A DNA stretch of 56,210 nt from Bacillota bacterium (GTDB lineage: Bacteria > Bacillota > Clostridia > Lutisporales > Lutisporaceae), in NCBI GenBank assembly GCA_022706825.1, contig JAKJBU010000004.1, positions 1 to 56,210 on the forward strand. The letters are read 5' to 3'. Shown in pieces: positions 21,867 through 56,210 of the stretch. Position numbers and translations under genes: made by a program. Under the pieces are notes generated by a model, which saw nothing but the letters and a program-made list of their open reading frames with translations, had not been told where the DNA came from and searched no databases. Numbering within the stretch: the first letter of the stretch is position 1; each line of letters opens with the position of its first letter.

Positions 21867-21886
21867 ATTAAAAATACGTTTTTTAA

Positions 21887-21955
21887 ACTCATATAATTTC
21901 GAGGATATGGCTCGGAAGTATCTACAACATAACCGTTAATTATGTTTCTATGAGT
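21887..21955 (+). ncRNA. Guanine-class purine riboswitch
   Basis: P1 is ACTCATA/TATGAGT (21887-21893/21949-21955). P2 is CGAG/CTCG with loop GATATGG; J2/3 is GAAGTATCTAC; P3 is AACATAA/TTATGTT with loop CCGTTAA. The two loops are the conserved kissing-loop pair. The specificity base in J3/1 is C (TCTATG), which pairs with guanine; adenine switches have U there. It controls guaB, consistent with guanine feedback on GMP synthesis. Confidence 0.93.
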
Positions 21956-21996
21956 GAAATTTCTTGTCTGCAATTTCACTATTGCAGACTTTTTTC
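21953..21996 (+). terminator. Riboswitch terminator with competing antiterminator
   Basis: The terminator is GTCTGCAAT/ATTGCAGAC (21966-21974/21981-21989) plus TTTTTT. The antiterminator is AGTGAAAT/ATTTCACT (21953-21960/21973-21980), which takes bases from both P1 and the terminator stem. Guanine binding should stabilise P1, free the terminator and switch the gene off. Confidence 0.88.
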
Positions 21997-38864: not shown

Positions 38865-41330
38865 ATGGACAAACTAAAGGAAGAATGCGGGATAATAGGT
38901 ATATACGACAAAGGCAACATGGAAATAGAAAGCCTTACCTATTACGGCCTCATTGCCTTGCAGCACAGGGGGCAGGAGAGCGCAGGGATTGCCGTCAACA
39001 GGGACGGGGTCATAACCTGTTATAAGGAAATGGGCCTGGTGTCCGAGGTTTTTGATGACAAGATATTGAACCTTTTAAAGGGGGATATCAGCATCGGCCA
39101 TGTAAGGTACTCAACAACCGGGGACAGTTTTGCCCACAATGCACAGCCCCTTTTAGTCAAGTACAAGAAGGGGAGCATAGCCCTTGCCCATAACGGGAAT
39201 CTGGTGAATGCAGGTTCGGTGCGGGAAGAGCTGGAGGACCAGGGTATGATTTTTACCACCACTATAGACAGCGAGGTTATTGCGGGCCTTATAGCAAGAA
39301 GCTGCAGCAAAGGCATTGAGGATGCCATACTGGATACCATGGACATTATCCGGGGCTCTTATTCCCTGGTTATAATGACCGATGACAAGCTTATAGGGGT
39401 GAGGGACAGTCACGGGCTGAGGCCGCTGGTTATAGGAAGGATAGGAAACGGTTACGTGCTGGCTTCCGAAACCTGTGCCCTGGACACCATTGGTGCAAGC
39501 TTCATAAGAGATGTCAGGCCAGGGGAGATAATAATCATTGATGAAAACGGTATGCGGAGCATACAGTGCAGGTCAACAGGGAAGCAGGCCGGATGCATTT
39601 TTGAATATATTTATTTTGCAAGGCCGGATAGCATTATGGACGGCATTAGCGTATACCAGGCCAGGGAAAAGGCAGGCAGGATACTGGCAGAGGAACAGCC
39701 TGCCGACGCGGATGTTGTTATCAGCGTGCCCGATTCGGGGACTCCTGCGGCAATAGGTTATTCGCTTCAGTCAGGAATTCCCTATGCAATAGGTTTGATA
39801 AAGAACAGATATATAGGAAGGACCTTCATACAGCCTTCCCAGGTTACCAGGGAAATAGGGGTAGCCTTGAAACTGAATCCTCTAAAGGCGAATATCGAAG
39901 GAAAGCGTGTTGTAATGGTTGACGACAGCATAGTGAGAGGCACTACCAGCAGGAAGATCGTGCAGGCCCTGAAGGCTGCGGGGGCAAAAGAGGTTCACGT
40001 AAGAGTAAGCTCCCCGGTAATCACCCATTCCTGCTATTTCGGCATAGAAACTTCAAACAGAGATGAGCTTGTGGGCGCGACCAGTGTATTGGAAGCAATA
40101 AGGGAAAAAATAGGAGCGGACAGCCTTGGATATCTCAGTTATGACGGAATCCTGCGGTCGGTGGGAAGCACGGGTGAGGGCTTCTGTACCGCATGCTTCT
40201 CAGGAAGGTATCCTATGGATATACCGGAAAATTGCAGCAAGGATGTTTTCGAGAGAAAAAATAATTTTGAAACAGAGGTGTGGGATCCTATGGATGAAAA
40301 ATTGACATACAAGGCTGCGGGAGTAGATGTGGAGGCAGGCTATGAAGCAGTGAAGCTGATGAAGCAGCATACAAAACGCACCATGATACCCGGAGTGCTT
40401 GGAGAATTGGGCAGCTTCGGCGGGTTTTTCGAGATAGACAGGGAAAGCTATAAGAACCCTGTCCTGGTTTCCGGAACTGACGGAGTAGGAACCAAGCTTC
40501 AGATCGCTTTTATGACAGGAAAGCATGATACAATCGGGATTGATTGTGTGGCAATGTGTGTCAATGATGTAGCCTGTCATGGGGCAAAACCCCTATTCTT
40601 TCTTGATTACATCGGGACAGGCAAGCTTATGCCGAATATAGCGGCTGACATAGTAAAGGGCGTGTGCGACGGCTGTGTTGAAGCAGGCTGTGCTTTGATT
40701 GGGGGAGAAACCGCAGAAATGCCGGGCTTCTATAAGGATGGGGAATATGACCTGGCCGGTTTTGCCGTAGGAATAGTGGACAAGGACAGTGTGATAAACG
40801 GTTCTAAAGTAAAAGAGGGGGATGTGCTGATAGGCATTGCTTCCAGCGGCATACACAGTAACGGGTATTCCCTGGTAAGAAAGCTCTTTTTCGGGATAAA
40901 CAATTTTGATATAAACACCAGATTTGACGAGCTGGAGGGCACCCTTGGAGAAGAGTTGCTGAAGCCCACAAAAATATATGTGAGGACAGTACAGTCCTTG
41001 ATAGCAAAACACAGGATAAACGGCATAGCCCATATTACCGGAGGCGGCTTCATAGAAAACATCCCCAGGACACTGCCCGCAGGGCTCAAGGCTCAGATAG
41101 ACCTCGGAAGCTGGGATATCCCTCCGGTGTTCAGGCTGATGCAGAGGTTGGGAAGCATAGAGAAAAAAGAAATGTTCAACACCTTCAATATGGGCATCGG
41201 ATTGGTACTGGCAGTCGGAAAACAGGACGCGAAAGGAATTCTCGGCACTCTTGAGGAACTGGGTGAAAAAGCCTATATCATAGGCAGTGTTGCCAGAGGT
41301 GAAGGGGGTATAGAATTTTGCGGAAGGTAA
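38865..41330 (+). CDS. purF-purM: Fused amidophosphoribosyltransferase - FGAM cyclo-ligase (PurF-PurM)
   Basis: 821 aa in one uninterrupted frame. Residues 1-~465 are PurF: a short propeptide then Cys8 ([10 protein letters not shown]), [13 protein letters not shown] loop [16 protein letters not shown], and Fe-S cysteines including SCYFG and CTACFSG. A linker of ~10 residues leads to PurM (476-821, 346 aa, normal length): [58 protein letters not shown]. The two catalyse steps 1 and 5 of purine synthesis. An old-looking start survives inside the linker: GAGGTG (40275-40280) and ATG at 40290, so separate PurM could still be made. The ATG at 38865 follows TAGGAGATAAGCC. Confidence 0.93.
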
Positions 41331-46188: not shown

Positions 46189-46217
46189 TTGATAGGATTG
46201 AATGAAGCATATATAAT
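46189..46217 (+). promoter_or_regulatory. Promoter of the cobalamin-controlled operon
   Basis: TTGATA (46189-46194), 17-base spacer, TATAAT (46212-46217), about 20 bases before the riboswitch. Confidence 0.8.
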
Positions 46218-46235
46218 AAAACTATAACTTAATAC

Positions 46236-46407
46236 TGATCAGGTGCCGGTTTGTTTATGAATAATCTGCCGGCTAAAAGGGAAGTCGGGTGAAAATCCCG
46301 CGCGGTCCCGCCGCTGTAAAAGAGGAGTTCTCCTTAAGATGTCACTGAGTAGATTGGGAAGGCAAGGAGAATGATGATGCTTGAGCCAGAAGACCTACCT
46401 GGTTTAT
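46236..46407 (+). ncRNA. Cobalamin riboswitch
   Basis: The conserved order of the B12 element is present: AGGTGCCGGTTTG, AAAAGGGAAGTCGGGTGAAA, TCCCGCGCGGTCCCGCCGCT (B12 box region), GTAAAAGAGGAG, and the 3' block GCCAGAAGACCTACCTG that closes P1. It precedes a terminator, so binding of a B12 cofactor should lower expression of the uptake operon that follows. Confidence 0.95.
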
Positions 46408-46478
46408 AACACTAAATACTCTACGAGAGATAGGGGGGTGTTCTTATATGCAGGATGATTATAGTCATTTTGTCACAT

Positions 46479-46516
46479 AACCTCTTAACTATTTAGTTAA
46501 GAGGTTTATCTTTTTA
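46479..46516 (+). terminator. Riboswitch expression-platform terminator
   Basis: Perfect 12-bp stem AACCTCTTAACT/AGTTAAGAGGTT with loop ATTT, followed by TATCTTTTT. It lies 72 bases after the riboswitch core. Confidence 0.9.
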
Positions 46517-46547: not shown

Positions 46548-49500
46548 ATGGGCAAGGCGTATTCATACAGGCGTGTATCAGCTATTATGCTGATAATGAT
46601 ATTTCTAACGGTAATTGCTCCTGTTGATTTGTATGGAACTGATTATACAGGAGTGCTTGACGATGTTGTTAATTATTATAAGTCAGATAAGCCCGGCCTT
46701 GATTCATGGTGGGAGCTTGTGGCGTTAAAAGGTACGGGACAGAACCTGAGTGATGACAGCTGGATACTTCCTCAGTGGGAAAGCGAGGATTTGCCTGCCG
46801 CAGCTGCAAATCCGGCAGATTATTCAGGATTTATACTGGGGCTTATGGCAATGGATGAAAATCCGCAAAATGCCCTTGGAGGCAGGAACCTGACGGAGGA
46901 ATTGGCAGGCAGGCAGGAGGAGGGCGGCGCTTTTGGCAATGGTGCAATTAATATGCATATATGGTCAATGGTTGCGTTAGATGCAGCAGAGGAGAATTAT
47001 GACAGGGAAAGCGCCGTTGAATGGTTACTGAGCAATCAGAAGGCCGATGGGGGTTTTGCTCTGTCCGGCATCAACGGCGATCCTGATATGACAGGAATGG
47101 CGCTGCTGGCATTATCTCCATATATAAATCAGGCTGATGTAAGCAGTGCTGTATCTCAGGCAGTTGAATATCTGGAAAATGCCCAGTGCGAATCAGGAGG
47201 CTACAGCTCATGGGGCATCGAAAATTCCAACAGTGCGGCGATGGTTATTTCGGGGCTTGTTTCTGCCGGCCAGGGTGTGAGCAGCTCCATTCTTGATGCG
47301 CTGCTGGAATATAGGCTGCCTGACAATACATTCAGTTATCAGAAAGGCGGCGCTACAAATTTCCTTTCTACCGCACAGTCCCTTATAGCACTGGGAGACA
47401 TAATTGAGAATAAGAGTATATTCCAAAGATTGAGCATTTCTCAGCAGCCCACGGATGGAGAGAAAGTCAGGATTCGGGTAGAAGGCAGCAGCTATAGCAT
47501 GGTAAATAAGGAAATAACAGTAACCTCTGCAGTGTATGCGGTAGATGCCTTGAAGCAGGTATTGGATTCCGAAAATATCACCTATGATATACAAGACGGC
47601 GTGTGGGGACAGTATATTAATGGCATTGACGGAGAAACCGCAGGAAAGTTCGGTGGTTATGACGGTTGGTTATATCTGGTTAACGGAGAAATGGCATCGG
47701 TGGGTGTAGGTGAATATAAAATCGAAGACGGAGATGAACTGGTATTTTATTATGGCATGTATCCACCGGATACTTTGATTCCCCAAGTGGATATACAACC
47801 TGTAAATCCTAAGGTAGGAGACAATTTAACGATTACTGTCACTTCAAGCTATTATGACTGGAATACCGGCAGTACGGTTGAGCTTAAAGTTCAAAATGCT
47901 GAAATAAGCTTCAACGGCAAGACCTATGCCACGGATGCCAATGGGCAGGCAATTGTGCCAAGTCCGGCTGATAAGGGTACATACACCTTGAAAGTAAGTA
48001 AGGATAACGATGGCAGTTATCCCAGCATCGTCCGCATCCCAGGTATTAATGTTATATATAGGGCGAATGGTAATGGCGGCGGAGGCAGCGGCAGCGGAGG
48101 CAGCGGTTCCGGCAGCGGCGGCTCTGCAGAAACTGCAACATTATCAGTGGAAGGTGACAGCCGTAAAGGTACGATATTGCCTGCTGTCCAAGTATTATTG
48201 CGGGATGGGGATACTGCTTACAGCATACTTGCAAGAAAAATGGGAAGTAAGGTAAAGGCTAAAGGCTCCGGCTCAAACATATATGTCTATGAGATTGACG
48301 GCTTGGCTGAGTTTGACAGGGGTCCGTCAAGCGGCTGGATGTTTGAGGTCAACGGGAGAAATCCTGATATTAGCGCTTCTGCCTATGTATTGAAGGATAA
48401 GGATGTTGTCAATTGGTATTATTCATCCGATTCCAATGAGAGCTTGGGTGCAACCGGTCAGACAGGAACTGCACAGTCAGGGAATAGCAGCGCGGAAATC
48501 AGCAGCACGTCAAATGAGGCAATAAAGAAAGCATTGTCAGAGAATATTCAGAATTCAGCTAATAAAATACTCACACAGGAAAACATTTCGGATTGGTCTG
48601 TTTTCGCACTGCAAAGGGCAGGCCGGAGCATACCCGAAAAATATATTGAATCCCTAAAGGTATACATTAATGAACATGCAGCGGGTTCCGGAAGTGCAAC
48701 CGATATTGCAAGGATGGTTCTGGCTGCAAGTGCAGCAGGAATGAATCCTGCGAACATAGACGGAAATAATCTGATTGAAAAGCTGTTCAGCATGGAGAAA
48801 ATCGACAGGCAGGGAGTCACAGGGCCGGTTTTTGCGCTGATAGCATTGGACAGCGGACCTTACAGTATTCCGTCAGGCGCAAGGTGGACGAGAGATAAGC
48901 TTGTTTCACTGATACTTGAATACCAGAATGAAGACGGAGGCTTCTGCCTTGCAAAAGATGAGAAAAGCGACATAGATTTGACAGCTATGGCACTGCAATC
49001 ACTGTCCGGTTACAGCAGCGAAAGCGCTGCTTCATCCGTAGAGAAAGCTATTGATTGGTTATCTAACCTGAAACCGGAAGAGGAGCAAACCAGTGAGAGC
49101 ATTTCACAGATTATCATAGCTCTTACATCTCTTGGTAAGGATCCGGGAAGCATACAGTTCGGCATGTATGATGGGGATTTGCTGACCTGCCTGCTGAAAT
49201 ATAAAAAGGAGGACGGCGGATTTTCACATACATTGGATGGAGACAGTGATGAAATGGCCACGGAACAGGCTTTAATGGCCATCACTTCATACAGCATGTA
49301 TGTTAACGGTTCAGGCAAGCTTTATTCCCTGCAGGTTCCTAATGGGGCATATTCAGACCTTCATGCGATTTCCGAATGGGCACTGCCGTATGTTGCCAAG
49401 GCCTCTGAGCAGGGACTGATGGAAGGGATAAAAACAGATGCTTCAGGGCAAAGGTTTGAGCCCAGGAGGAACATTTCAAGGGCAGAGCTTACTGCGCTGC

Positions 49501-49892
49501 TTTTAAGGATTTTGGGAGAAGAACCGTCAAAGAGCTTTACGCCGGTATACAATGACATAAAAGAGGGTTCATGGTATTCAGGATACGTTCTGAGGGCCAG
49601 AGAAAAGGGTATCATTAACGGTGTTACAGAAGTCACCTTCGACCCCAACAAACCGGTTACAAGGCAGGAGATGGCTGTCATGACGGCCAGAGCTTTTAAT
49701 CTTGGTGAAAAAGCATCAGGCAGCAGGATAAATGACTTGGACATTGCTTCGGAATGGGCAAGGCAGGCTATTGAGGCTGTTTACGATAACGGTATTATGA
49801 TGGGGGAAAGTAATATGTTCAACCCGAAGGGTTATGTCAGCCGTGAAATGGCAGCAGCTGTCGGAGTAAGACTCTATAATATGAAGCAATAA
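46548..49892 (+). CDS. SLH-anchored protein with two alpha-barrel and two DUF4430 domains; candidate surface B12-binding protein
   Basis: 1114 aa with a signal peptide (residues 1-~30). Order: helical repeats of the prenyltransferase/squalene-oxidase barrel type (~35-295; SNQKADGGFALSG); DUF4430 (~305-405; GYDGWLYLVNGE, VGVGEYKIEDGDELVFYYG); an Ig-like domain (~410-505); a Gly/Ser linker; a second DUF4430 (~530-625; GPSSGWMFEVNGR); a second helical barrel (~655-925; YQNEDGGFCLA, YKKEDGGFSHT); three SLH repeats (~935-1114). An alpha6-alpha6 barrel plus a DUF4430-like beta domain is the architecture of transcobalamin and intrinsic factor. With the cobalamin riboswitch and the ECF genes behind it, surface capture of B12 is the best inference. 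The ATG at 46548 follows GGAGGTTG. Confidence 0.85.
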   Translation: MGKAYSYRRVSAIMLIMIFLTVIAPVDLYGTDYTGVLDDVVNYYKSDKPGLDSWWELVALKGTGQNLSDDSWILPQWESEDLPAAAANPADYSGFILGLMAMDENPQNALGGRNLTEELAGRQEEGGAFGNGAINMHIWSMVALDAAEENYDRESAVEWLLSNQKADGGFALSGINGDPDMTGMALLALSPYINQADVSSAVSQAVEYLENAQCESGGYSSWGIENSNSAAMVISGLVSAGQGVSSSILDALLEYRLPDNTFSYQKGGATNFLSTAQSLIALGDIIENKSIFQRLSISQQPTDGEKVRIRVEGSSYSMVNKEITVTSAVYAVDALKQVLDSENITYDIQDGVWGQYINGIDGETAGKFGGYDGWLYLVNGEMASVGVGEYKIEDGDELVFYYGMYPPDTLIPQVDIQPVNPKVGDNLTITVTSSYYDWNTGSTVELKVQNAEISFNGKTYATDANGQAIVPSPADKGTYTLKVSKDNDGSYPSIVRIPGINVIYRANGNGGGGSGSGGSGSGSGGSAETATLSVEGDSRKGTILPAVQVLLRDGDTAYSILARKMGSKVKAKGSGSNIYVYEIDGLAEFDRGPSSGWMFEVNGRNPDISASAYVLKDKDVVNWYYSSDSNESLGATGQTGTAQSGNSSAEISSTSNEAIKKALSENIQNSANKILTQENISDWSVFALQRAGRSIPEKYIESLKVYINEHAAGSGSATDIARMVLAASAAGMNPANIDGNNLIEKLFSMEKIDRQGVTGPVFALIALDSGPYSIPSGARWTRDKLVSLILEYQNEDGGFCLAKDEKSDIDLTAMALQSLSGYSSESAASSVEKAIDWLSNLKPEEEQTSESISQIIIALTSLGKDPGSIQFGMYDGDLLTCLLKYKKEDGGFSHTLDGDSDEMATEQALMAITSYSMYVNGSGKLYSLQVPNGAYSDLHAISEWALPYVAKASEQGLMEGIKTDASGQRFEPRRNISRAELTALLLRILGEEPSKSFTPVYNDIKEGSWYSGYVLRAREKGIINGVTEVTFDPNKPVTRQEMAVMTARAFNLGEKASGSRINDLDIASEWARQAIEAVYDNGIMMGESNMFNPKGYVSREMAAAVGVRLYNMKQ

Positions 49893-49901
49893 TAATATTA
49901 A

Positions 49902-49932
49902 GCCTCCTGCCTGTAAAAATACAGGCAGGAGC
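49902..49932 (+). other. Intercistronic hairpin
   Basis: CTCCTGCCTGT/ACAGGCAGGAG is an 11-bp perfect stem between the surface-protein gene and the lipoprotein gene. No T-run follows, so it may protect or process the mRNA, or terminate partially, giving more of the first product. Confidence 0.6.
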
Positions 49933-49962
49933 AAAATCCATTATTTAATGCGGGAGAGTAAT

Positions 49963-50565
49963 ATGAGAAGATTCACATTTTTATTATATGCAGTACTTCT
50001 GATAATTTTATCAGGGTGCGGCAATGCAGCAGATGCGGACATTCCGAATTCGGAGAAGATTTCAAAGCCGGTATTGTCTGATGAAAGCAATTGCATAAAG
50101 GGTACAAAAAAAGAAGATATCCCGGATGGTAAAACAAGTATTAAACCGGAGAGTAAATCGGAAAGTAAAAATAATGAAGAGCATGTAGTAAATCAAGAAG
50201 CAGCAACTGCCAAGGTACATATTTCCATTACGGGACATAAGGATGTGGGGATAATTCTTGCAGATACGGCAGTAAATATTGATGAGGGGGATACGGTAAT
50301 TGATGTTTTGAAAAGAACTGCAGAACTAAACAGTATACAGCTGGAATGCAGCGGAATCAAAGCCATGGCATATGTAAAAGGCATTGGGAACACCTATGAA
50401 TTCGATTACGGTCCCAAGAGCGGCTGGATTTACAGAGTAAACGGGGAAATATCCAATGTAGGTGCGGGCAAATATGAAGTGAAAGACGGAGATTATATCG
50501 AATGGCTGTATACGGTGGATTTAGGAAGGGAGTTTGATACGGAATCAGGAGGAGCTCAGGAATGA
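49963..50565 (+). CDS. DUF4430 lipoprotein, candidate B12 shuttle
   Basis: 200 aa. The lipoprotein signal is MRRFTFLLYAVLLIILSGC with Cys19 in the lipobox. A charged, Lys/Ser/Glu-rich linker (~25-80) precedes one DUF4430 domain (~85-195): DEGDTVIDVLKRTAE, FDYGPKSGWIYRVNGEISNVGAGKYEVKDGDYIEWLYT. The same domain occurs twice in the upstream surface protein. Its place between the wall protein and the ECF genes suggests a membrane-anchored relay for cobalamin; this is inference. The ATG at 49963 follows GGGAGAG (the ATG at 49948 overlaps it). The stop overlaps the next start by 4 bases. Confidence 0.82.
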   Translation: MRRFTFLLYAVLLIILSGCGNAADADIPNSEKISKPVLSDESNCIKGTKKEDIPDGKTSIKPESKSESKNNEEHVVNQEAATAKVHISITGHKDVGIILADTAVNIDEGDTVIDVLKRTAELNSIQLECSGIKAMAYVKGIGNTYEFDYGPKSGWIYRVNGEISNVGAGKYEVKDGDYIEWLYTVDLGREFDTESGGAQE

Positions 50566-51440
50566 ATGCAGGATTTTCGTCGGTACATCCCGGAGTATGC
50601 TTTACATATTATACCGTAATAATGGCTTTTGCAATGATTTTGTACCATCCTGCTTACCTGGCCTCAATGCCCATAGCTTTGATAACCTGGCTATTGCTGC
50701 ATGAAAAGGGCAGAAGCCTGTCCGGTTCATGGCATTATTACCTGCTGACAGGTATTGCGGTACTGATAATAAATCCTCTCATAAACCACAGAGGGGAGAG
50801 GGTTCTGTTTTTTCTCGGTGAACAGGCTGTGACCTTTGAAGCTGTTGTATACGGATTCACTATGATGCTGTCGATGCTGACAATACTTATTGCATTTATT
50901 TGTTTCCGTCAGGCAGTGGATAATCATAAATTCCTGTATCTTTTCTCATCCATCCTTCCCAAAACAGCATTCCTGATAATGATGTCAATGGGCTTTGTCC
51001 CTTTGCTTACTGACAGGATGAAGCAGATATCCATTGTTCAGAAAGCCAGGGGGCTGGATATGACGGAAGGAACTGCCGTAAAGAGGGCAAAGGACGGTAT
51101 GCAAATATTGAAGATTCTTATTTCCTGGTCTCTTGAAGGAGCACTGCAAACTGCCGATTCGATGAAAGGGAGAGGCTATGGAATTGCAAAAAGGAGCAGC
51201 TATATGAAATACAGGATAGATGGCAGGGATTGGCTGATTATGGCATCAATTGCAATACTATCGGCTATCACTTCCATTGGTTTATATTTTGGATATGGAA
51301 AGCTTGTGATTTTTCCGTCCTTGGAAATCATAAGCATGGATATTACCGGCATTGTTTTTTATTCTGCCTTCTGTTTGCTGTTGCTTATACCAATAATTGT
51401 TGAGGGAAGGGAAATCTTAATATGGCACTGTTACAAATAA
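50562..51440 (+). CDS. ecfT: ECF transporter transmembrane component (EcfT)
   Basis: 292 aa with about five to six membrane segments. The two coupling-helix motifs of EcfT/CbiQ proteins are present: QKARGLDMTEG (about residues 163-173) and ADSMKGRGYGIAKR (about 202-215); their Ala-Arg-Gly and Gly-Arg-Gly cores dock on the ATPases. It starts inside the lipoprotein stop (ATGA) with GGAGCTCAGGA upstream and overlaps the ATPase gene by 19 bases. Confidence 0.92.
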   Translation: MNAGFSSVHPGVCFTYYTVIMAFAMILYHPAYLASMPIALITWLLLHEKGRSLSGSWHYYLLTGIAVLIINPLINHRGERVLFFLGEQAVTFEAVVYGFTMMLSMLTILIAFICFRQAVDNHKFLYLFSSILPKTAFLIMMSMGFVPLLTDRMKQISIVQKARGLDMTEGTAVKRAKDGMQILKILISWSLEGALQTADSMKGRGYGIAKRSSYMKYRIDGRDWLIMASIAILSAITSIGLYFGYGKLVIFPSLEIISMDITGIVFYSAFCLLLLIPIIVEGREILIWHCYK

Positions 51441-53086
51441 ACAACTTTAATTTTACTTATGCGGGAGATACAAAAAAGGTTCTTTCAGGAATAAATCTTA
51501 CCGTCGGGCAAGGAGAGTTTATTGTATTATGCGGACCATCAGGTTCAGGGAAAACGACACTTCTCCGTAATATAAAAAGAGAGATAAGTCCTGCGGGCAT
51601 TAAAACCGGAGATATACTGTACAAAGGTATGGCCTTAGATGAATTAAAGGCTGAGGTAAGTGCAAAAGAGATAGGAATGGTGTTCCAGGAACCGGACAGC
51701 CAGATTGTCATGGATACGGTGATTCATGAGCTGGCCTTTTCCCTTGAGAATTTTGGGTATGCACCTGATTTTATAAATAAGAAGCTATCCGAAATGGCCG
51801 CTTTTTTCGGATTGACTGAATATCTGCATAAGCCGGTGCAAGAACTGTCAGGAGGCCAGAAGCAGGTAATAAACATCTGTTCTGTCATGCTAACAGAGCC
51901 GAAGCTGCTTTTATTGGATGAGCCTACATCTCAGCTTGATCCGGTAGCAGCCCGTGAACTTATAAGCTTGATTCATCAGATAAACCGGGAATTTTCTGTT
52001 ACTGTAATAATTAGCGAACACAGGCTGGAAGAGCTTTTTTCAATAGCAGACCGGGTTGTTTATATGGATGGGAGTATTATTAAGTATTGCAATTCTCCGG
52101 ATGGGGTATCAAAGGAGATTATGGAAGCCAAAGACGAATATGCAGTTAAATCTATCCCTCCAATAGTACGTTTGTTTTTCAGCCTTTCAAAGGAGAAAGG
52201 CAAAGGCCCAGGGTGCGGCATTCCCATGAGCGTAAGAGAAGGAAAGCAGTTTATGCAAAATATCAGATGCAGTGTTAACGGGTTGACTGATATGGAAATC
52301 AAGAAGGATTGGGTTGAAGAGATCATTAACTGTAAGGATATCGGCTTTAGATATGCCAGGGAAGAGCCCATGGTTCTAGAGAAACTGACACTTAAAATAA
52401 TGAAAGGGGAATTCATGGCTATACTGGGCGGCAACGGGTCAGGCAAAAGCACGCTGCTGCTGGCGATGGCCGGGCTGATAACCCCGCAGCAGGGCAGCAT
52501 CTGTGTCAGAAAGAAGAATATCACCTATATGAAACAGTCTGAAAGAAACGGTATAATAGGCTATGTTGCGCAAAATCCTTTGCTTCATTTCACATTGGAT
52601 ACAGTAAAGGAGGAGCTTGAATTTGCATTGCAGAACTCATTAAAAACCGGAAGCAAAGCAAAAATGGAAGAGCTTATTGAACTATTCGGCTTGAAGGATT
52701 TAACGGACAGGCATCCCTATGATTTGAGCGGAGGCCAGCAGCAAAATCTGGCTGTCGCATGTGCTTTGATTCATGAACCGGAGATACTGTTGATTGATGA
52801 ACCTACCAAGGGGCTTGACAGCATATCAAAGGAAAAACTTGCAGAATTGTTAAAAAGCCTTAAGGGTAAAGGTACTTCCGTAGTTATGGCAACCCACGAT
52901 ATTGAGTTTGCAGCACACTATGCTGAAAAATGCGCAATGCTGTTTGACGGTTCTATATCAGATTGCGCTGAACCTTCAAGGTTTTTCAGCGGCAATTACT
53001 TTTATACTACTTCGATTAACCGGGCGGTAAGGGATTATCTGCCTCACGCAATAACATATGAGGATGTGATAAGGGCATGCCTATGA
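51422..53086 (+). CDS. ECF transporter ATPase, two nucleotide-binding domains in one chain
   Basis: 554 aa. Domain 1 (~1-240): Walker A LCGPSGSGKTTLL, Q-loop FQEPDSQIV, signature ELSGGQKQ, Walker B LLLLDEPTSQLD, switch His in SEHR. Domain 2 (~305-545): ILGGNGSGKSTLLL, AQNPLLHFT, DLSGGQQQN, ILLIDEPTKGLD and ATHD. It is equivalent to EcfA1 plus EcfA2 fused. It powers solute release from the S component. It overlaps the S-component gene by 10 bases. Confidence 0.94.
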   Translation: MALLQINNFNFTYAGDTKKVLSGINLTVGQGEFIVLCGPSGSGKTTLLRNIKREISPAGIKTGDILYKGMALDELKAEVSAKEIGMVFQEPDSQIVMDTVIHELAFSLENFGYAPDFINKKLSEMAAFFGLTEYLHKPVQELSGGQKQVINICSVMLTEPKLLLLDEPTSQLDPVAARELISLIHQINREFSVTVIISEHRLEELFSIADRVVYMDGSIIKYCNSPDGVSKEIMEAKDEYAVKSIPPIVRLFFSLSKEKGKGPGCGIPMSVREGKQFMQNIRCSVNGLTDMEIKKDWVEEIINCKDIGFRYAREEPMVLEKLTLKIMKGEFMAILGGNGSGKSTLLLAMAGLITPQQGSICVRKKNITYMKQSERNGIIGYVAQNPLLHFTLDTVKEELEFALQNSLKTGSKAKMEELIELFGLKDLTDRHPYDLSGGQQQNLAVACALIHEPEILLIDEPTKGLDSISKEKLAELLKSLKGKGTSVVMATHDIEFAAHYAEKCAMLFDGSISDCAEPSRFFSGNYFYTTSINRAVRDYLPHAITYEDVIRACL

Positions 53087-53637
53087 TAAGATTCGAGACA
53101 AAAAAGCAGGACCCGCGGGAATTGGTTCTGATTTCGATGCTTGCAGCAATAGCGGCAATCAGCAGAATATTGTTCGCACCTCTGCCGAATTTTAAACCAA
53201 TGTCTTTTGTTATTATTGTTACCGGCATTGTATTCGGCCCGGAATCCGGCTTCATGGTGGGATCTGTATCGGCAATCCTGTCAAATATTTTTTTCGGCCA
53301 GGGTCCGTGGACTTTACTGCAGATGCTTGCCTGGGGATTGATGGGGCTTACGGCCGGACTTTTAAGAAATACGGTCTGGATTAAAAGCAGGTATGGAATA
53401 TTAATGTTTGGATTCTCCTGGGGATTCATATTCGGTTGGATAATGGATGCATGGTACATCATAGGATTCATAAGGCCGTTGAACCTGATGACAATTATTG
53501 GAGGCCTTTCTGCTAGCTTTTATTTTGATTTGATGCATGCGCTTGCAAATACTTTTTTCCTGGGAATTTTTTCAAAGAGCTGGATAAAGCTGTTTAATCG
53601 CATAAAGATAAAATACGGTTTACTGGAAGACTCTTAG
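53077..53637 (+). CDS. ECF transporter substrate-binding (S) component, likely cobalamin-specific
   Basis: 186 aa with six predicted membrane segments. The N-terminus RELVLISMLAAIAAISRILFAPLPNFKP has the Ala-rich helix-1 motif by which S components meet EcfT. Then FVIIVTGIVFGPESGFMVGSVSAILSNIFFGQGPWTLLQMLAWGLMGLTAGLL, a block common to CbrT-like and related S proteins. Specificity for cobalamin rests on the riboswitch and operon context; a precursor such as cobinamide is also possible. It is the last gene of the operon. Confidence 0.85.
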   Translation: MPMIRFETKKQDPRELVLISMLAAIAAISRILFAPLPNFKPMSFVIIVTGIVFGPESGFMVGSVSAILSNIFFGQGPWTLLQMLAWGLMGLTAGLLRNTVWIKSRYGILMFGFSWGFIFGWIMDAWYIIGFIRPLNLMTIIGGLSASFYFDLMHALANTFFLGIFSKSWIKLFNRIKIKYGLLEDS

Positions 53638-55312: not shown

Positions 55313-56210
55313 TTATTCTTCGTATACTATGACTGCTTCCTTGGTGCTGTTAATCCAGTCCACTTTGCAGTTGAGGTTCTCTGCTGCAAATCTTACCGGT
55401 ACAAAGGTTCTTCCGTTCTTAGATACGGGGGCTACATCCATTTTCTGGCTGACTCCGTTTATTTTTATATCAGTTTTGTCCAACCACATTTCAACCACAT
55501 TTCCTCTGGCTGTTAGTGTTATCTTACGTGTGTCTTGCTCCCATCCTATCGTGCCTCCCATGGCTTCCACGACGGCACGGATTGGTACCATTGTTCTTCC
55601 TGCAATGGTCATAGGTGAGGTGCTGCGTCCCGGGTCCACTTCCTGGATTACTCCGTCCACACTCATATTCGGGTTGTCAAGCTTGAGCATGATGAAGTGC
55701 TTAAAGCTTCCGGGCTTGTAGACCTGGCTGCCTGTTGTTACTGTATATGTGGCAATTGCAGCACCCAGTTTTTCATCTATTCCTTCGAAGGGTTTTGCTT
55801 CTGCGAGTACCGGCTTTACAGTGTAATAGTAAGTGGTGTTGGCTTCAATATTTACATCAGCATAAGAGGTGCCGGTTATATAAAAGTCAGTTACTGATAT
55901 GCCAAGGTCACTTTTGGAGGTTGACCTGAACAGCCTGTATCCCAATCCGTCAGCAGGCTGCCACATTATCCTTGATCCGGATTCAAATGTTTCTGCATTG
56001 CTTCCTGCCGAATTGGCCTGAGTTGTTGTAATTACAGGTGCAGGAGATGTTGCTGCCGGTTTTGGTGCGGGAATAACCTCAGTAATACGCATGCTGCCAT
56101 CCCAATTACTCCAGCTTCCTTCTGAACCGTAGCGCCATCTGCCGGTAAAGCTTTTCCCGTCGGCGGACATTGTAAGCTCCATGTCACCGGCATCGGACGG
56201 TGGTGAATAG
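55313..56210 (-). CDS. Copper-amine-oxidase-like stalk-domain protein (cut by window edge)
   Basis: The minus-strand frame is open through the right edge, so the N-terminus is missing; at least 298 residues are visible. The C-terminal ~110 residues are the copper amine oxidase N-terminal-like 'stalk' domain: LDNPNMSVDGVIQEVDPGRSTSPMTIAGRTMVPIRAVVEAMGG, VVEMWLDKTDIKINGV, DVAPVSKNGRTFVPVRFAAENLN. Before it is a fibronectin-like segment (YRLFRSTSKSDLGISV, NTTYYYTVKPV). Such domains serve as wall or surface modules in Clostridia, with no oxidase activity. The stop is at 55313-55315. Confidence 0.85.
   Translation of the reverse strand, partial: YSPPSDAGDMELTMSADGKSFTGRWRYGSEGSWSNWDGSMRITEVIPAPKPAATSPAPVITTTQANSAGSNAETFESGSRIMWQPADGLGYRLFRSTSKSDLGISVTDFYITGTSYADVNIEANTTYYYTVKPVLAEAKPFEGIDEKLGAAIATYTVTTGSQVYKPGSFKHFIMLKLDNPNMSVDGVIQEVDPGRSTSPMTIAGRTMVPIRAVVEAMGGTIGWEQDTRKITLTARGNVVEMWLDKTDIKINGVSQKMDVAPVSKNGRTFVPVRFAAENLNCKVDWINSTKEAVIVYEE

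What the first reader, a model, noticed from the sequence alone, without database searches (positions are those of the whole stretch)
46548..49892. Mirror-image double transcobalamin-like architecture in one chain
The domain order is barrel, DUF4430, Ig-like, linker, DUF4430, barrel, SLH x3. The second unit is inverted relative to the first. In transcobalamin B12 is clamped between barrel and beta domain, so this chain could make two separate clamps or one four-part site. The Gly/Ser linker near residue 515 is the mirror point.
Basis: partly seen in the sequence, partly recalled or inferred. Interest (0 to 1): 0.55.

Follow-up and report, generated by a model that had tools for sequence, protein, structure and literature searches.

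The report
Mirrored double vitamin-B12 clamp surface protein
A bacterial cell-wall protein carries two B12-clamp-like units, one barrel-then-cap and one cap-then-barrel, behind a B12-sensing RNA switch and beside a vitamin importer; it looks like a two-headed vitamin B12 catcher, a variant of a known kind of scavenging system.

Summary
Window 46548-49892 encodes 1114 aa: barrel (54-286), DUF4430 (321-402), Ig-like region, Gly/Ser linker (503-533), DUF4430 (549-628), barrel (682-926), SLH x3. Both barrels model as alpha/alpha toroids, and the N-terminal unit's 15 best Foldseek chains in the PDB are all transcobalamin, haptocorrin or intrinsic factor. The order is shared with two full-length orthologues (L130, L223) and a fourth chain (L225), all with riboswitch and importer. 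It is not an inverted duplication: the barrels are 25% identical and fall in different subgroups. Each unit also occurs without the other (L060, L005), favouring two separable clamps over one four-part site; binding was not tested. Both orders in separate bacterial proteins, and a B12-scavenging role, were proposed in 2007 (PMC1796856). Verdict: a real new variant of a known kind; stoichiometry and specificity are open.

The parts
46189..46217 (+). promoter-like site (11 of 12 consensus bases)
   Evidence: consensus match only: 1 found, 1.4 expected in shuffles of the region
46224..46416 (+). cobalamin riboswitch aptamer RF00174
   Evidence: 109.2 bits, cut-off 31.5, E 1.7e-26
46479..46506 (+). 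terminator-like hairpin (12 pairs) followed by a T-rich tail, possible expression platform
   Evidence: 2 terminator-like sites found, 0.2 expected; read
46548..49892 (+). mirror chain, 1114 aa
46548..46637 (+). probable Sec signal peptide, residues 1 to about 30
   Evidence: inspection of the translation; no predictor run
46707..47405 (+). barrel 1 (alpha/alpha toroid), residues 54-286
   Evidence: model; VIA squalene-hopene cyclase Z 18.4, intrinsic factor Z 17.2, transcobalamin Z 17.2
47508..47753 (+). DUF4430 domain 1, residues 321-402
   Evidence: (59.8 bits)
47763..48047 (+). Ig-like region, residues 406-500
   Evidence: weak Pfam hits under cut-off; mostly strands in the model
48054..48146 (+). 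Gly/Ser-rich linker, residues 503-533
48192..48431 (+). DUF4430 domain 2, residues 549-628
   Evidence: (59.9 bits)
48591..49325 (+). barrel 2 (alpha/alpha toroid), residues 682-926
   Evidence: model pLDDT 84.6; VIA squalene-hopene cyclase Z 20.5, haptocorrin Z 17.8
49356..49871 (+). three SLH motifs, residues 937-1108
   Evidence: S-layer protein Sap E 3.5e-13 over residues 943-1103
49948..50565 (+). third DUF4430 protein, lipobox-like LSGC, probable lipoprotein
   Evidence: 71.3 bits; lipobox by inspection
50562..51440 (+). EcfT-like membrane protein
   Evidence: no Pfam hit itself; its counterparts in 4 of 5 other loci scanned match CbiQ PF02361 over cut-off
51422..53086 (+). fused two-domain ECF ATPase
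   Evidence: TIGR04520 347.8 bits, cut-off 315; two ABC_tran stretches
53077..53637 (+). ECF S component
   Evidence: PF12822 47.4 bits (cut-off 30.7), PF07155 39.2 (26.7); folate-family TIGR04518 32.7, under its cut-off of 60

Best explanation
It is a cell-wall-anchored corrinoid-capture protein with two separable transcobalamin-like clamps. When B12 is low the riboswitch lets the operon be made (inferred from the riboswitch and the terminator-like hairpin). The chain is exported and held in the wall by its SLH motifs (inferred). Barrel 1 with DUF4430-1, and DUF4430-2 with barrel 2, each sandwich one corrinoid (inferred from homology). In human transcobalamin the two domains share a very small interface and come together only when cobalamin is added (PMC5599065, passages), so the order in which they are strung should matter little; that would explain why barrel-cap and cap-barrel both occur and shuffle freely. 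The third DUF4430, a probable lipoprotein at the membrane, then receives the corrinoid, perhaps by replacing the cap on a loaded barrel, and hands it to the ECF importer (the most speculative step).
For: B12 control: RF00174 at 46224-46416, 109.2 bits, with promoter- and terminator-like sites. Importer genes follow with overlaps or short gaps. Recurrence: of 62 riboswitch matches at E <= 1e-4 in 94 loci (61 distinct), 57 lie on the same strand within 900 nt upstream of a barrel or DUF4430 gene (overlap with the called start of up to 250 nt allowed), in 56 of 94 loci. All four complete mirror chains found have riboswitch and ECF genes. Folds. Both barrels keep the most conserved polar residues of 97 aligned barrels, these two included: D180/D810 (93 of 97), T182/T812 (88 of 97), Q277/Q907 (95 of 97), W55/W683 (85 of 86). 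Separable units: L060 is barrel-DUF4430-SLH, 39% identical to residues 8-502, and its genome (94% complete) has no match to the C-terminal unit at E <= 1e-20; L005 is DUF4430-barrel, with a DUF4430 match that covers model positions 23-71 of 72. A barrel-DUF4430 fusion stands directly before EcfT in L084, L122 and L126, which suggests that a barrel and the ECF-side DUF4430 work together. The own genome has one pyruvyl-transferase-family gene (PF04230), of the kind SLH anchoring needs (recalled).
Against: No binding was tested. Sequence cannot say whether both clamps bind, whether they bind the same corrinoid, or whether domains pair within or across units. The N-unit model is weak (pLDDT 65.4, pTM 0.47) and its Foldseek superposition with transcobalamin is loose (rmsd about 20-22 A), so the clamp geometry is not shown. 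Both barrels fit squalene-hopene cyclase at least as well as B12 binders (barrel 2 Z 20.5 against 17.8; barrel 1 Z 18.4 against 17.2). The whole chain by itself finds transcobalamin in the PDB only weakly (E 0.27 and 0.72). The S component reaches no B12-specific model and resembles folate and riboflavin families. The genome has a second cobalamin riboswitch before a BtuF-like protein and an ABC ATPase, so this is not its only candidate B12 importer. In 14 of 88 loci with a barrel neither EcfT nor a counted riboswitch lies in the stretch fetched.
Confidence: 0.62

Rival explanations
1. One four-part site: both barrels and both DUF4430 domains close around a single corrinoid (or a corrinoid-carrying partner), the linker acting as a hinge.
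For: The B-D...D-B order is kept in three orthologues from three families (window f1, L130 f75, L223 f92), as if both halves were needed together.
Against: Each half occurs without the other elsewhere (L060, L005). The number of DUF4430 copies between the barrels varies from 2 to 4 in the four complete chains. The linker differs in make-up and L223 lacks the Gly/Ser run. In transcobalamin one barrel and one cap sandwich a single B12 (PMC1796856, passage).
Confidence: 0.08
2. Only one unit is a working B12 clamp; the other binds something else (wall glycan, another cofactor, a partner protein) or is a spacer.
For: The barrels are only 25% identical and of different subgroups; both match terpene cyclases at least as well as B12 binders; DUF4430-2 is nearer the third DUF4430 protein (36% over 91 columns, E 7e-17) than DUF4430-1 (32% over 47 columns).
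Against: Both barrels keep the most conserved D-x-T and T-x-Q residues; both DUF4430 domains share the seven columns invariant in 14 aligned copies, themselves included; both halves persist in the orthologues.
Confidence: 0.2
3. The barrels are cyclase-type or complement/thioester (TED)-type domains with a function unrelated to B12.
For: Squalene-hopene cyclases and alpha-2-macroglobulin or complement-like chains are among the profile hits of both barrel types, and the best ones are cyclases; Pfam TED_complement passes its cut-off in L130 (33.8 bits, cut-off 22), though not in the window (18.2).
Against: The sequence shows D-x-D-[LM]-T where cyclases carry D-x-D-D (motif recalled; aligned stretches), and no Cys-Gly-Glu-Gln thioester motif (recalled) occurs in the chain (inspection). 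The cobalamin riboswitch and DUF4430 partners point to B12.
Confidence: 0.05

Closest known systems
Animal transcobalamin, intrinsic factor and haptocorrin
   Same: alpha/alpha barrel followed by a DUF4430-type beta domain (N-terminal unit); the 15 best Foldseek chains for that unit are all of this group
   Different: two units in one chain, the second in reverse order; Ig-like region, linker, SLH anchor; bacterial operon with importer
Bacterial transcobalamin-like SLBB proteins of Burroughs et al. 2007 (PMC1796856; abstract, passages and section 7 part 1 seen; its Figure 2A not held)
   Same: toroid before or after the beta-grasp domain in different proteins, Ig fusions, second extracellular SLBB protein in the operon, CbiO/CbiQ genes, B12 scavenging proposed
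ECF transporters for B12 such as ECF-CbrT (PMC5997447; passages seen)
   Same: EcfT, ATPase and S component
   Different: in those passages the S component itself is the substrate-binding protein and no surface capture protein is described; the present S component matches no B12-specific model
SCO2321 family membrane protein, NCBIfam NF053823
   Same: best NCBIfam match of the chain, three stretches, 57.3 bits
   Different: far below the curated cut-off of 300 bits, so not a member
Bacteroides surface B12-binding lipoproteins (PMC6143338; search listing only)
   Same: surface capture of corrinoids
   Different: different bacterial group; not compared at sequence level here

Membership tests
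Transcobalamin-type two-domain B12 binder | alpha/alpha barrel domain | tested here: met
   both barrels:
Transcobalamin-type two-domain B12 binder | beta domain of the DUF4430 type (PF14478) | tested here: met
   two copies over the Pfam cut-off; a profile of 16 barrel-DUF4430 units hits transcobalamin-2 over the DUF4430 part, E 6.6e-4. Weaker: a DUF4430-only profile reaches transcobalamin-2 at E 0.078, behind designed Scone proteins at E 0.0046
Transcobalamin-type two-domain B12 binder | order barrel then beta domain | tested here: inconclusive
   met in the N-terminal unit, reversed in the C-terminal unit
Transcobalamin-type two-domain B12 binder | binds cobalamin between the two domains | not testable with these tools
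   no ligand modelling or assay
SLBB superfamily, transcobalamin-like clade | two conserved glycines of the superfamily | tested here: inconclusive
   two glycines are invariant in 14 aligned DUF4430 copies; they were not mapped onto those named in the paper
SLBB superfamily, transcobalamin-like clade | beta-hairpin insert after the helix | not tested
   strands follow the helix in both models, but this part was not superposed
Cobalamin riboswitch RF00174 | covariance model score over the gathering cut-off | tested here: met
   109.2 bits against 31.5
ECF importer | T, two ATPase domains and S component together | tested here: met
   ATPase TIGR04520 over cut-off, S component PF12822 over cut-off, T only through its relatives' CbiQ matches
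ECF importer | S component specific for B12 | not testable with these tools
   only general Pfam models and a folate-family model under its cut-off match; the same in L223 and L130
SLH surface protein | three SLH motifs | tested here: met
Terpene cyclase (squalene-hopene type) | catalytic DxDD motif (recalled) | tested here: not met
   DPDMT (178-182) and DIDLT (808-812) stand where cyclases have D-x-D-D-T (inspection)
TED/complement thioester protein | CGEQ thioester motif (recalled) | tested here: not met
   absent from the chain by inspection

The most novel reading that the evidence does not exclude
The chain is a two-headed relay with two different heads: each clamp is tuned to a different corrinoid or affinity, and because barrel and cap meet only through the bound vitamin, the third, membrane-side DUF4430 takes the vitamin by swapping places with the cap on a loaded barrel. 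Domain order is then free to shuffle, and the number of caps per barrel sets how the relay works.
Probability: 0.25. Interest if true: 0.7.

Novelty: new variant of a known kind. Interest (0 to 1): 0.42.

Why it matters
The papers seen here say little about how Gram-positive bacteria gather corrinoids at the wall before an ECF importer. This chain gives a single-protein test: stoichiometry tells at once whether the transcobalamin clamp works in either domain order. It also shows that the fold known from human B12 carriers is a shuffled module set in bacteria, with a two-barrel mirror form in several families of one phylum, which bears on the proposal that animals took the gene from bacteria (PMC1796856).

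Tried and rejected
Inverted duplication of one unit: rejected, because barrels 1 and 2 are 25% identical and group with different relatives. Chance or assembly artefact: rejected by L130 and L223. Whether the shared order came by vertical descent or transfer was not tested. L225 shares the order but its first barrel groups with L226 and not with the other first barrels, so it may be a separate assembly; its second barrel is unresolved. Taken as sets of five, neither the first nor the second barrels of window, L130, L223, L224 and L225 form one clade (fewest changes 4 and 3). L224 lacks a detectable first DUF4430 and lies on a 3.7 kb contig, so it was not counted as complete.

How rare the mirror form is was not measured. 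In one search, 86 of 391 genomes of the class matched the C-terminal unit at E <= 1e-20 and only part of them was fetched, 8 of 398 genomes of the phylum (own included) matched at E <= 1e-40, the other seven were fetched, and two of the seven (L223, L225) hold a complete mirror chain.

Viral contigs: two scans found no relative. Literature: eight searches; judged from the listings, none reports a chain with both orders. The library holds open-licence papers only; one search listed 20 of 34 papers and one search listed 15 of 58. De novo B12 synthesis: no CbiC in the own genome, but that genome is 71% complete, so the absence is weak.

Alignment A4 (N unit) has the tails of its three barrel rows misplaced over the DUF4430 region; a trimmed version, A6, had lower identities for those rows and was not used. 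In one search the rows span model residues 118-390 mainly and residues 1-264, so the DUF4430 domains were hardly tested there; DUF4430-2 rests on the profile match. Trees are quick ones with SH-aLRT support only; two long-branch rows (L145_B204, L082_B95) were left out. The DUF4430 tree has 86 columns for 148 rows and resolves little.

Riboswitch count: model R1 was built from 7 sequences that are themselves among its 62 counted matches; 8 of 70 matches with E above 1e-4 were dropped; L211 overlaps L130, so one match is counted twice and the 94 loci are 93 distinct stretches. The loci were chosen for matching the chain or DUF4430, so 56 of 94 is a description, not a controlled test. The lipobox pattern was found in only 19 of 77 stand-alone DUF4430 proteins as called here, with uncertain start codons, so 'lipoprotein' is not claimed for the family.
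Full report
What was checked. The ORF 46548-49892 (+) codes for 1114 aa. Pfam finds two DUF4430 stretches, three SLH stretches and two Prenyltrans (alpha-alpha toroid) stretches, each family over its cut-off for the whole protein. Scored one by one, the DUF4430 copies reach 59.8 and 59.9 bits. Profiles made here place B54-286, D321-402, D549-628, B682-926 and SLH937-1108. A Gly/Ser-rich linker spans 503-533.

Surroundings. A cobalamin riboswitch (RF00174, 109.2 bits) lies at 46224-46416, 131 nt before the start codon. A promoter-like site (46189-46217) precedes it and a terminator-like hairpin (46479-46506) follows it; both are consensus matches. Downstream come a third DUF4430 protein with a lipobox-like LSGC, an EcfT-like protein, a fused ECF ATPase and an S component. 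The EcfT-like protein has no Pfam hit itself, but its counterparts in L223, L130, L225 and L004 match CbiQ over the cut-off, while that of L007 does not. The own genome (1.8 Mb held, 71% complete) has one other cobalamin riboswitch, before a BtuF-like protein (PF01497) and an ABC ATPase, four B12-binding-domain matches, no CbiC match and one pyruvyl-transferase-family gene.

Folds. The C-terminal unit (535-935) was modelled with mean pLDDT 84.6 and pTM 0.69. Its barrel matches squalene-hopene cyclase (Z 20.5), haptocorrin (Z 17.8, 237 aligned, rmsd 3.4), intrinsic factor (17.5) and transcobalamin (17.4). The N-terminal unit (31-500) was modelled less well (pLDDT 65.4, pTM 0.47), yet its 15 best Foldseek chains in the PDB are all transcobalamin, haptocorrin or intrinsic factor (best E 5.1e-10, 405 columns). 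The large rmsd (about 20-22 A) means that the relative placing of the two domains does not agree. Barrel 1 in the second look matches squalene-hopene cyclase at Z 18.4 and intrinsic factor and transcobalamin at Z 17.2, beside epimerases and other proteins of the same general fold, so the fold alone does not name the ligand. A profile of 16 barrel-DUF4430 units hits transcobalamin-2 over the DUF4430 part with E 6.6e-4; a DUF4430-only profile is weaker (E 0.078).

Relatives. Counting 93 of them (L211 left out), 30 chains have the single-pair order barrel-DUF4430 and 12 the order DUF4430-barrel; three are DUF4430-barrel-DUF4430-barrel and three barrel-DUF4430-barrel, SLH motifs ignored. Eleven chains with two or more barrels were found among those loci and 23 further named loci. 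A search of 398 genomes of the phylum added L223, L225 and the partial L224. Complete mirror chains ending in SLH x3 are thus the window, L130 (three DUF4430 copies), L223 (exactly the window's order, 41% identity over 6-1113) and L225 (four DUF4430 copies). All four have a cobalamin riboswitch upstream and T, ATPase and S genes downstream.

Origin. In the barrel tree the first barrels of window, L130, L223 and L224 fall in one 11-row set (SH-aLRT 98) together with seven other barrels, and the second barrels of window, L130 and L223 form a group (91) outside it. The chain therefore joins two barrel types that had already diverged. L225's first barrel groups with L226, so its mirror order may be separate, and L224's second barrel groups with L075. 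The DUF4430 tree has too few columns to resolve much; pairwise, DUF4430-2 is closest to the third DUF4430 protein (36% over 91 columns, E 7e-17) and DUF4430-1 is more distant.

B12 link across the family. Riboswitch model R1 finds 62 matches at E <= 1e-4 in the 94 loci (61 distinct); 57 sit on the same strand within 900 nt upstream of a barrel or DUF4430 gene, in 56 of 94 loci. Sixty-one of 88 loci with a barrel also hold EcfT; 14 of 88 show neither EcfT nor a counted riboswitch in the stretch fetched, several of them short contigs. Barrel-DUF4430 fusions stand directly before EcfT in L084, L122 and L126, whereas in L073, L079, L081 and L086, for example, the barrel and the DUF4430 protein before EcfT are separate genes. 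That is the pattern expected of partners.

How it most likely works. Shown: the domain order, the folds of the barrels by model, the riboswitch, the importer genes, the recurrence. Inferred: export and wall anchoring; capture of one corrinoid by each barrel-cap pair; hand-over through the third DUF4430 protein to the importer. The reason offered for tolerating either order is that in human transcobalamin the two domains share a very small interface and assemble only on adding cobalamin (PMC5599065, passages seen). The conserved D-x-T and T-x-Q residues are present in both barrels, so neither looks decayed. Occurrence of each half without the other (L060, whose genome has no match to the C-terminal unit at E <= 1e-20; and L005) argues for two clamps.

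What is known. Burroughs et al. 2007 (PMC1796856; abstract, passages and section 7 part 1 seen; its Figure 2A could not be seen) described toroids before or after the beta-grasp domain in different bacterial proteins, operons with CbiO- and CbiQ-like genes and a second SLBB protein, and proposed B12 scavenging. The present chain combines both orders in one molecule; judged from their listings, the eight literature searches made hold no report of that. It is a new variant of a known kind.

Verdict. Observation confirmed; interpretation partly supported. Interest 0.42: a clean, testable natural design, but its parts and general function were foreseen.

Noticed in passing
window 38865-41330: One ORF holds glutamine amidotransferase domains (PurF-like start) followed by both AIR synthase domains (PurM-like), an apparent PurF-PurM fusion among purine genes.
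   Followed up: partly
window 21869-21970: Purine riboswitch aptamer RF00167 (83.8 bits) on the + strand.
   Followed up: no
L159 (own genome contig C142): Second cobalamin riboswitch of the genome, before a BtuF-like binding protein and an ABC ATPase: a possible second B12 import system.
   Followed up: partly
L225:5803-11109: Related chain with four DUF4430 copies between two barrels; its first barrel groups apart from the other first barrels, so the mirror order may have arisen twice.
   Followed up: partly
L084, L122, L126: Barrel and DUF4430 fused in one protein directly before EcfT, where other genomes have them as two genes.
   Followed up: partly
L130:17993-18188 (-): A further cobalamin riboswitch on the same contig as the L130 chain, about 3.75 kb from the nearest same-strand gene among the families scanned.
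   Followed up: no
window 49904-49931: Perfect 12-pair hairpin between the mirror chain and the lipoprotein gene; the terminator-like call is on the - strand only.
   Followed up: no
window 55313-56182 (-): Protein with a copper amine oxidase N-terminal-type domain (PF07833, 106 bits) near the window's end.
   Followed up: no
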